This document shows, one piece after another, positions 57,009-57,989 of a stretch of DNA of 64,000 bases. A program made the position numbers and the translations under genes. The notes under the pieces were generated by a model. That model had not been told where the DNA came from. It made no database searches and worked only from the letters and a program-made list of their open reading frames with translations. Position 1 is the stretch's first letter. Every line of letters begins with the position of its first letter. This stretch comes from Prochlorococcus marinus XMU1408 (GTDB lineage Bacteria > Cyanobacteriota > Cyanobacteriia > PCC-6307 > Cyanobiaceae), in contig NZ_QJUE01000001.1 in assembly GCF_003208055.1 (NCBI RefSeq), positions 1 through 64,000 on the forward strand, given 5' to 3'.

Positions 57009-57326
57009 ATGCTACGCAAGCAAGAGAAAAATGCAGTCACTAGAGGAATTATCCTTGCTATCGGTTGGGGATGGGGTTTAGATAGATTTTATGAGGGTGA
57101 TAAAAAAGGAGGTATTCTCTCAATTATTGGCTGGGGGATTATATTTACAAGTTTTCTATTTTTGAAATGCTCAGGTATCGAATATGTTGATGGCGTAAAA
57201 GATTATTCAAACTACAGTCCAAACCCTTTAATTGTTCTTCCCTTAATTGCTGGTTTATATGGAATATATTTAATCATTCGAAAAGGGTTTAGGTTAGCAA
57301 AGCAATTTGAAAATGCAGAAGACTAA
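57009..57326 (+). CDS. TM2-like small membrane protein
   Basis: A 105-residue protein with two membrane segments (about 18-53 in two parts: GIILAIGWGWGLDRFYEG, then GGILSIIGWGIIFTSFLF) and a third around 74-92 (PLIVLPLIAGLYGIYLII). The motif GWGLDRFYEGDKKGGIL resembles the TM2 domain core (G-x-HRFYxG), a small membrane module of unknown function in bacteria. The C-terminus is charged. Its start is preceded by the perfect dyad at 56,976. Isolated gene; no operon partner. Confidence 0.7.
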   Translation: MLRKQEKNAVTRGIILAIGWGWGLDRFYEGDKKGGILSIIGWGIIFTSFLFLKCSGIEYVDGVKDYSNYSPNPLIVLPLIAGLYGIYLIIRKGFRLAKQFENAED

Positions 57327-57414
57327 AAAAATCTAGAAAGATGAAAAACTTGTAATTAGTGGAATCCAAGTCATTTTGTTTTTTACTAGTGACAAAGAGT
57401 CATCAAATAAGTAA

Positions 57415-57497
57415 AAATGAATCAACAGGACAACTCCTCACACAATCGTTCTGTTAAAAAAAGCATCCATCTTGTAAAAAGTTGGGTGCTTTTCTAA
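57415..57497 (+). ncRNA. Candidate Yfr1-like small RNA
   Basis: The 11-mer ACTCCTCACAC at 57,433-57,443 is identical to the ultraconserved unpaired motif of the cyanobacterial regulatory RNA Yfr1. It lies in an 18-base loop closed by AACAGGA (57,424-57,430) and TTCTGTT (57,449-57,455), and is followed at 57,459 by a terminator hairpin. Yfr1 uses the motif to pair with ribosome-binding sites of porin mRNAs in Prochlorococcus. Canonical Yfr1 is shorter, has the motif between two stems and usually lies near trxA/guaB, so this may be a relocated copy, a relative, or chance. The 5' end is not defined. Confidence 0.45.
57459..57494 (+). terminator. Terminator hairpin of candidate small RNA
   Basis: AAAAGCATCCA (57,459-57,469) pairs with TGGGTGCTTTT (57,483-57,493) across a 13-base loop, with one wobble. 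The A/T-rich base of the stem supplies the T-run for the plus strand. It could alternatively end the transcript of the TM2-like gene, 133 bases upstream. Confidence 0.7.
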
Positions 57498-57566
57498 ATG
57501 ATTTCTGTCACATGGCACTTATGACAATCAAGAAACTGATTTGCTAAGAATTAGGATATTGATCTA

Positions 57567-57719
57567 ATGAATCAAGTAAAAACTAGTTGTTTATCTCAAA
57601 AAAAACTCGACAAGCCATTAATAATTTTGTTTTTATCTCAATTAATTATTAAAGAAAAGCAAAAAACTTTTGATCTAACGGTTTTTTCTACAAAATATTT
57701 GAAACCAATTTCCCAATAA
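57567..57719 (+). CDS. Possible small ORF, 50 residues
   Basis: ATG at 57,567 to TAA at 57,719, reading MNQVKTSCLSQKKLDKPLII and onward with one hydrophobic stretch (PLIILFLSQLII). No clear ribosome-binding site is seen. It lies 34 bases before the next gene. Lys/Phe/Ile-rich composition is what random AT-rich sequence gives, so it is listed only as a possibility. Confidence 0.2.
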   Translation: MNQVKTSCLSQKKLDKPLIILFLSQLIIKEKQKTFDLTVFSTKYLKPISQ

Positions 57720-57752
57720 ATCCACTAAATTAGTTATTTCAACATTTATTGA

Positions 57753-57989
57753 ATGACTAACGAAAACAACAAAGACAAAAAACAGTGTGGTGAGAAAAGA
57801 AAAGCAATGTTTGCTTATGGAATTATTCAACTTGGCTCTAATGTTATTTCTGCTGTTGCTCTTTCGGCAATTGCATTCAGTTTTTGCTCTTTAAAAAAAG
57901 AATCAAATATTTTCAACGAATGTGTTGAAGAAGTTCAATTAAGTGGTAAAACCTTCTCTAATGCAGTTCGATATTGTAATGGTGGCTAA
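57753..57989 (+). CDS. Small hypothetical membrane protein
   Basis: A 78-residue protein: charged N-terminus (MTNENNKDKKQCGEKRK), one hydrophobic segment of about 25 residues (GIIQLGSNVISAVALSAIAF), then a tail with two more cysteines (NECVEEVQLSG, RYCNGG). Four cysteines in total could pair after membrane insertion. A perfect palindrome follows 6 bases after the stop. No family recognised, but the balanced composition and the 3' dyad support a real gene. Confidence 0.6.
   Translation: MTNENNKDKKQCGEKRKAMFAYGIIQLGSNVISAVALSAIAFSFCSLKKESNIFNECVEEVQLSGKTFSNAVRYCNGG

What the first reader, a model, noticed from the sequence alone, without database searches (positions are those of the whole stretch)
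57415..57497. Yfr1-like ACTCCTCACAC motif with terminator in an accessory spacer
Seen: an exact 11-base match to the ultraconserved Yfr1 motif, displayed in a loop and followed by a strong hairpin. Known: Yfr1 RNAs in marine cyanobacteria carry this motif unpaired and target porin mRNAs by covering ribosome-binding sites. An 11-mer this C-rich is expected well under once by chance in 64 kb of such AT-rich DNA. Inference: this is Yfr1 itself at an unusual locus or a variant of it.
Basis: partly seen in the sequence, partly recalled or inferred. Interest (0 to 1): 0.66.

Follow-up and report, generated by a model that had tools for sequence, protein, structure and literature searches.

The report
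Yfr10-type small RNA, partner lost
A marine Prochlorococcus genome carries, besides its normal Yfr1 gene, a small regulatory RNA of the known Yfr10 kind whose usual next-door partner RNA (Yfr2) has decayed here; it is a neat natural variant of a known system rather than a new one.

Summary
The 11-base motif is real: window 57433-57443 (+), once in 64 kb against 0.01 expected, in the 16-nt loop of an 8-bp hairpin followed by a terminator-like hairpin. It is not Yfr1. The genome's own Yfr1 lies elsewhere, between an IMP-dehydrogenase (guaB-type) gene and trxA, and scores 64.5 bits against Rfam Yfr1. The window element matches Rfam Yfr10 end to end, at 34.1 bits, below the curators' 43. A Yfr10 model built only from other genomes of the genus gives 84.9 bits. 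The spacer is not accessory: 20 of 23 loci of this subtype follow the same upstream gene. In 15 of the 20 a Yfr2 gene over Rfam's cut-off lies just downstream. Here Yfr2 survives only as a remnant, 36 of 57 bases alike, its anti-Yfr10 sequence gone. Most likely it is an expressed trans-acting Yfr10 that pairs with mRNAs and with the three Yfr2 copies elsewhere (12, 12 and 11 contiguous pairs). Expression and targets are untested. New member of a known family; modest interest.

The parts
57389..57417 (+). Putative promoter: -35-like GTGACA (57389-57394), 17-nt spacer, -10-like TAAAAA (57412-57417)
   Evidence: Read from sequence; GTGACA at 57389 also listed by the scan, though the scan found no more sites than shuffles. 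The box TAGTGACAAAA..TARAAA is conserved in subtypes A and B. Inferred, no start-site data.
57424..57455 (+). Yfr10 stem-loop: 8-bp stem 57424-57431/57448-57455 with the motif loop 57432-57447
   Evidence: Fold; in 89 distinct Yfr10-type sequences of the genus 96.5% of stem cells pair, 3 pairs change on both sides, against 33-48% paired for slid registers. Window is on average 97.5% identical to 19 syntenic copies here.
57433..57443 (+). Yfr1/Yfr10 motif ACTCCTCACAC
   Evidence: Exact match
57459..57497 (+). Terminator-like hairpin and short U tract; expected 3' end near 57495
   Evidence: Fold; simple terminator scan lists none; consensus hairpin in other genomes
57419..57493 (+). Whole sRNA as matched by a model built without this genome
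   Evidence: 84.9 bits, E 3e-14; Rfam RF02362 Yfr10 57424-57506, 34.1 bits, below gathering 43
57513..57526 (+). Degenerate palindrome TGGCACTTATGACA; siblings have TGTCACATGTGACA before Yfr2. Candidate remnant of a Yfr2 promoter element
   Evidence: Alignment; its identity with the published CGRE1 element is a guess (CGRE1 sequence not read)
57541..57597 (+). Yfr2 remnant (pseudogene): 36 of 57 identical, ungapped, to the Yfr2 at the G004 subtype-A locus; anti-Yfr10 sequence GTGAGGAGTTG reads CTAAGAATTAG
   Evidence: no Cyano-1/Yfr2 hit here
57009..57326 (+). Upstream conserved ORF, 105 aa (no Pfam family)
   Evidence: Homologue 91-98% identical upstream in 20 of 23 subtype-A loci including this one and in 3 further held loci; Pfam none
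57753..57989 (+). Downstream conserved ORF, 78 aa (no Pfam family)
   Evidence: Homologue downstream in 18 of 23 subtype-A loci including this one; Pfam none

Best explanation
The element is a Yfr10-family small RNA gene (I call it subtype A) of an LLI-clade Prochlorococcus. It is transcribed from its own promoter to about 72 nt and works in trans: the CAACUCCUCACA loop pairs with complementary mRNA stretches and with Yfr2 RNAs. In most relatives it is encoded just upstream of a Yfr2 gene, whose 5' end is the complement of the loop. In this genome that Yfr2 has decayed, so this Yfr10 is an orphan that can meet only the three Yfr2 RNAs encoded elsewhere. Shown: motif, fold, covariation, family match, synteny, partner loss, complementarity. 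Inferred: transcription, pairing in the cell, targets, and that the balance shifts towards free Yfr10.
For: Motif and fold. Full-length Rfam Yfr10 match, below threshold. Leave-own-genome-out model: 84.9 bits here, 97 and 87 at C1:74695 and C1:70813. Stem covariation. Synteny: upstream ORF in 20 of 23 subtype-A loci. Yfr2 within 400 nt downstream in 21 of 23 subtype-A, 34 of 36 B and 24 of 26 C sites; of the four B/C exceptions two lie within 120 nt of the end of the held sequence and a third within about 310 nt. Yfr2 remnant: window 57500-57760 aligns to siblings better than all 300 shuffles in 13 of 22 comparisons. Loop pairs with the 5' ends of the genome's three Yfr2 RNAs at about -21 kcal/mol, with 12, 12 and 11 contiguous pairs. 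Published: Yfr10/12/18 adjacent to Yfr2/4/5 (PMC2518516, passages); Yfr10-Yfr2 interaction and Yfr10 targets in MED4 (PMC6778093, passages and one section).
Against: Rfam's Yfr10 score is under the gathering cut-off (34.1 against 43). The terminator scan found none. No RNA-seq or Northern data. In 3 of 23 held syntenic loci the Yfr10 motif is altered while Yfr2 stays, so Yfr10 at this place is not under absolute constraint. Yfr1 gives a stronger predicted duplex with Yfr2 than the window Yfr10 (-33.0 against -24.2 kcal/mol for one Yfr2), so a Yfr10-specific role in binding Yfr2 is not shown. The window's terminator arm is less like its siblings than they are to each other (75% against 86%).
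Confidence: 0.85

Rival explanations
1. It is Yfr1 itself, moved or duplicated.
For: Exact motif.
Against: No RF01116 match at E up to 10; motif in a hairpin loop, not between two hairpins; true Yfr1 at C4:85797 between guaB-type gene and trxA, 64.5 bits.
Confidence: 0.02
2. It is a dying Yfr10: after loss of Yfr2 the RNA is no longer needed or expressed and is drifting.
For: Terminator arm and promoter are less conserved than among siblings (75 against 86%, 78 against 84%); other copies in this genome have altered motifs (C1:70813 ACCCCTCACAC, C1:75120 CTCCTTACC).
Against: Stem-loop on average 97.5% identical to syntenic copies, all 8 pairs kept, both hairpins fold with z -6.67.
Confidence: 0.12
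3. It is a cis-acting leader or 3'-UTR element of the neighbouring small ORFs.
For: Lies between two conserved + strand ORFs.
Against: Own promoter-like box and terminator-like hairpin; in siblings a whole Yfr2 gene separates it from the downstream ORF; the same kind of RNA occurs at other loci without these neighbours.
Confidence: 0.05
4. Chance match of an 11-mer near a terminator.
For: Chance copies of the motif do exist (6 of 134 genus sites were not assigned to any RNA class).
Against: 0.01 expected in the window; 134 copies in 37 genus genomes against 26 for the reversed pattern (my sums); conserved structure and synteny.
Confidence: 0.01

Closest known systems
Yfr10 sRNA family (Rfam RF02362; Prochlorococcus MED4 Yfr10, 78 nt)
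   Same: Motif in the loop of a stem, terminator-like hairpin after it, about the same length, Yfr2 as usual downstream neighbour in the genus
   Different: Below Rfam's gathering score; here the Yfr2 neighbour is a remnant; locus is syntenic within this genus, whereas PMC6778093 reports poor synteny and structure conservation among Yfr10 homologues overall
Yfr1 (Rfam RF01116)
   Same: ACUCCUCACAC motif
   Different: Different architecture and locus; the genome has a separate true Yfr1
Yfr2 family (Rfam RF01701 Cyano-1)
   Same: Complementary partner; its remnant starts 108 nt downstream of the motif start
   Different: It is the interaction partner, not the element
Yfr12 and Yfr18 of MED4
   Same: Further Yfr10-like copies beside Yfr4 and Yfr5; Yfr12 has a mutated motif, as C1:70813 has here (PMC2518516)
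   Different: Other strain, other loci; orthology not tested

Membership tests
Yfr10 | ACUCCUCACAC motif | tested here: met
Yfr10 | Motif single-stranded in the loop on top of a stem | tested here: met
Yfr10 | Rfam RF02362 at or above gathering score | tested here: not met
   34.1 bits against 43, full length 1-78, E 0.002. The paralogue at C1:74709, directly upstream of a Yfr2, scores 32.5 and also misses it, so I judge the Rfam model too narrow for this clade; that is an inference, and a numeric cut-off rather than a biological feature
Yfr10 | Match to a clade model built without this genome | tested here: met
   84.9 bits, E 3e-14; model from 42 of 57 A/B sites of other genomes, picked by hand to leave out oddly gapped ones
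Yfr10 | Gene directly upstream of a Yfr2 homologue (stated for HL strains in PMC6778093; usual, not definitional) | tested here: not met
   Only a remnant here; met in 21 of 23 subtype-A sites
Yfr10 | Expressed as a short RNA | not testable with these tools
   No transcript data for this strain
Yfr1 | Rfam RF01116 match | tested here: not met
   Absent at E up to 10
Yfr1 | Locus between guaB and trxA | tested here: not met
   That locus holds another copy
Yfr2 (for the remnant) | RF01701 match | tested here: not met
   Only three other places in the genome match; the remnant is claimed as a pseudogene, not a member

The most novel reading that the evidence does not exclude
Yfr10-Yfr2 pairs in LLI Prochlorococcus are a duplicating two-RNA module in which each partner can be lost separately. 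At this locus 15 of 23 held strains keep both, 5 keep Yfr10 with Yfr2 lost or decayed (this genome among them) and 3 keep Yfr2 with an altered Yfr10 motif. Strain-specific partner loss would reset the free level of the Yfr1/Yfr10 motif and so the whole regulon.
Probability: 0.35. Interest if true: 0.55.

Novelty: new member of a known kind. Interest (0 to 1): 0.33.

Why it matters
Yfr2 is proposed to titrate Yfr1 and Yfr10 (PMC6778093). A strain in which a Yfr10 gene is intact and its neighbour Yfr2 is a remnant, next to sisters with the opposite loss, is a natural experiment for that model. It also shows that Rfam's Yfr10 model scores this genome's copies below its cut-off, and that one Yfr10 locus is syntenic within a genus although the family was described as poorly syntenic.

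Tried and rejected
Yfr1 identity: rejected by the covariance model and the second locus. My idea that the Yfr10 loop is a better antisense to Yfr2 than Yfr1 is: rejected, Yfr1 gives the stronger predicted duplex. Phage origin: 0 matches of the extended pattern in viral contigs and only one weak short hit (E 0.1) in phage records. A supposed fifth subtype without a hairpin turned out to be the reverse complement of the Yfr2 5' end (6 sites). Perfect 10-mer complements of the loop in the genome: of 9 places, 3 are the Yfr2 genes and 2 the complements of the Yfr10 genes; of the other 4 none lies just upstream of a start codon of an ORF of 60 aa or more (one is 110 nt upstream of an ORF start and inside another ORF), so no mRNA target is proposed. 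One search used a wrong Rfam accession (RF01117, a Ciona microRNA) and says nothing. RF01702 had no match. No tRNA in the window.

Full report
Observation. ACTCCTCACAC is at 57433-57443, + strand, the only copy in the window, with 0.01 expected. The stretch 57423-57497 folds into a hairpin with the motif in its 16-nt loop and a second hairpin after it (-23.9 kcal/mol, z -6.67, 0 of 200 shuffles as good). The simple terminator scan lists nothing here. A -35-like GTGACA and a -10-like TAAAAA, 17 bases apart, precede it; the scan's promoter count is not above shuffles, so the promoter rests on its conservation in relatives.

Which family. At gathering thresholds Rfam finds nothing in the window. 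With relaxed thresholds the best match to 57200-57700 is Yfr10, 57424-57506, 34.1 bits against a cut-off of 43, full length; Yfr1 is not listed. The exact 11-mer occurs three times in the 1.8-Mb genome: here, at C1:74709 and at C4:85797. The C4 copy is Yfr1: 64.5 bits, cut-off 38, between an IMP-dehydrogenase-domain protein and a thioredoxin, the published guaB-trxA place (PMC6778093, passages seen). The C1:74709 copy lies directly upstream of a Yfr2 gene at C1:74838; other Yfr2 genes are at C1:70977 and C2:111984.

Relatives. A search of 60 relatives gave 134 exact motif sites in 36 of 37 genomes of the genus (own included; my sum), against 26 for the reversed pattern. I fetched all of them (with the window) and sorted them by best alignment to hand-chosen seeds: 97 Yfr10-type (A 23, B 36, C 26, D 12), 25 Yfr1, 6 reverse complements of Yfr2, 6 unassigned. 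Several A/B assignments have small margins (below 5 score units for some rows), so the subtypes are working labels. On 89 distinct Yfr10-type sequences (8 of 97 dropped as duplicates or cut by the ends of held sequence) the stem pairs in 96.5% of cells with 3 pairs changed on both sides; slid registers pair 33-48%. The 11-mer itself is invariant by selection. A model from 42 of the 57 A/B sites of other genomes (hand-picked, oddly gapped rows left out) scores the window at 84.9 bits, E 3e-14; in the genome it also finds C1:74695 (97 bits), C1:70813 (87 bits, motif ACCCCTCACAC) and weakly C1:75120 (32.8 bits, motif CTCCTTACC).

Who carries it. The extended pattern CAACTCCTCACACAN{0,4}GTTCT hits 71 stretches in named genome contigs, 70 of them titled Prochlorococcus and one Lachnoclostridium; outside the genus it hits 1 of 117 family genomes drawn. 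That G033 is strain NATL2A is recalled from its length.

Partner loss. Of 23 subtype-A sites, 21 have Yfr2 within 400 nt downstream on the same strand; the exceptions are the window and G013. The upstream 105-aa ORF is present in 20 of 23 and the downstream 78-aa ORF in 18 of 23, so the locus is syntenic, not accessory. Among those 20, Rfam Yfr2 over its cut-off is found downstream in 15; G034 is below the cut-off (33.2) and G000, G002, G005 and G013 have no listed match there (that search used stricter filters; G002 and G005 still have weak nhmmer matches of 30.2 and 45.3 bits). In the window, 57541-57597 is a Yfr2 remnant, 36 of 57 identical without gaps to the G004 copy. The whole downstream stretch beats all 300 shuffles in 13 of 22 comparisons; in the other nine, 1 to 209 of 300 shuffles do as well; with the genome's own Yfr2 sequences alone, 0, 6 and 8 of 300. 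The remnant's 100 nt fold at -8.0 kcal/mol against about -30 for intact Yfr2. In 19 syntenic comparisons the window is on average 97.5% identical in the stem-loop but 56.7% in the Yfr2 part, where the others average 80.2% among themselves. Because sites were found by the exact motif, loss of Yfr10 is undercounted: three more held loci with the upstream ORF (G020, G023, G031) have altered Yfr10 motifs and a Yfr2 (Cyano-1 45.8, 56.5 and 39.7 bits, the last just below the cut-off).

Mechanism. Yfr2 carries GTGAGGAGTTG, the complement of the loop. The window loop pairs with the 5' ends of the three intact Yfr2 RNAs at -21.0 to -21.2 kcal/mol; 1, 1 and 12 of 2000 shuffled loops do as well. Co-folding gives Yfr1 a larger gain than Yfr10; that method, as I know it, cannot form loop-to-strand contacts, so it may undervalue Yfr10. 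In MED4, Yfr2 binds Yfr1 and Yfr10, blocks their binding to ppa mRNA, and Yfr10 rises in darkness (PMC6778093, passages and section 9). By analogy the window RNA acts in trans on mRNAs and is titrated by Yfr2. Whether loss of the adjacent Yfr2 changes that balance is inference.

Literature. Yfr10/12/18 and their adjacency to Yfr2/4/5 were published in 2008 (PMC2518516, passages). The term Yfr10 occurs in 4 held papers, two of which only by longer names such as Yfr103 or Yfr106. In the passages that I read I saw no report of an orphan Yfr10 with a Yfr2 remnant; supplements were not available.

Noticed in passing
C1:70813-71041 of the window's genome (L047 6813-7041): Yfr10 copy with a one-base motif change (ACCCCTCACAC) directly upstream of an intact Yfr2, reminiscent of the mutated Yfr12 of MED4.
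   Followed up: partly
C1:74695-75203 of the window's genome (L047 10695-11203): Row of three: Yfr10 (intact), Yfr2, then a subtype-D-like Yfr10 with decayed motif CTCCTTACC.
   Followed up: partly
Subtype D sites in the genus (12 sites): In 7 of 12, Yfr2 lies upstream (300-626 nt) rather than downstream of the Yfr10 copy, the reverse of the usual order; one of the seven is a weak Yfr2 match (24.1 bits).
   Followed up: partly
L147, L148 (G023:C13): Tandem Yfr10-Yfr2 units 419 nt apart near both ends of one contig in opposite orientation; could be an assembly artefact of single-cell amplification.
   Followed up: no
L069 (G002:C1:1384879 and 1396246): Two nearly identical Yfr10-Yfr2 units 11.4 kb apart; such repeats could serve recombination of a variable region.
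   Followed up: no
L151, L153 (G030:C6:4216, G030:C28:2735): Two unassigned motif sites, each followed by a CCC..T-rich..GGGGG hairpin-like stretch, possibly another motif-bearing sRNA type.
   Followed up: no
L247, L248 (G020, G033): Yfr10-like hairpin with motif variant ACTCCTCGCAC upstream of Yfr2, nearly identical in two genomes.
   Followed up: no
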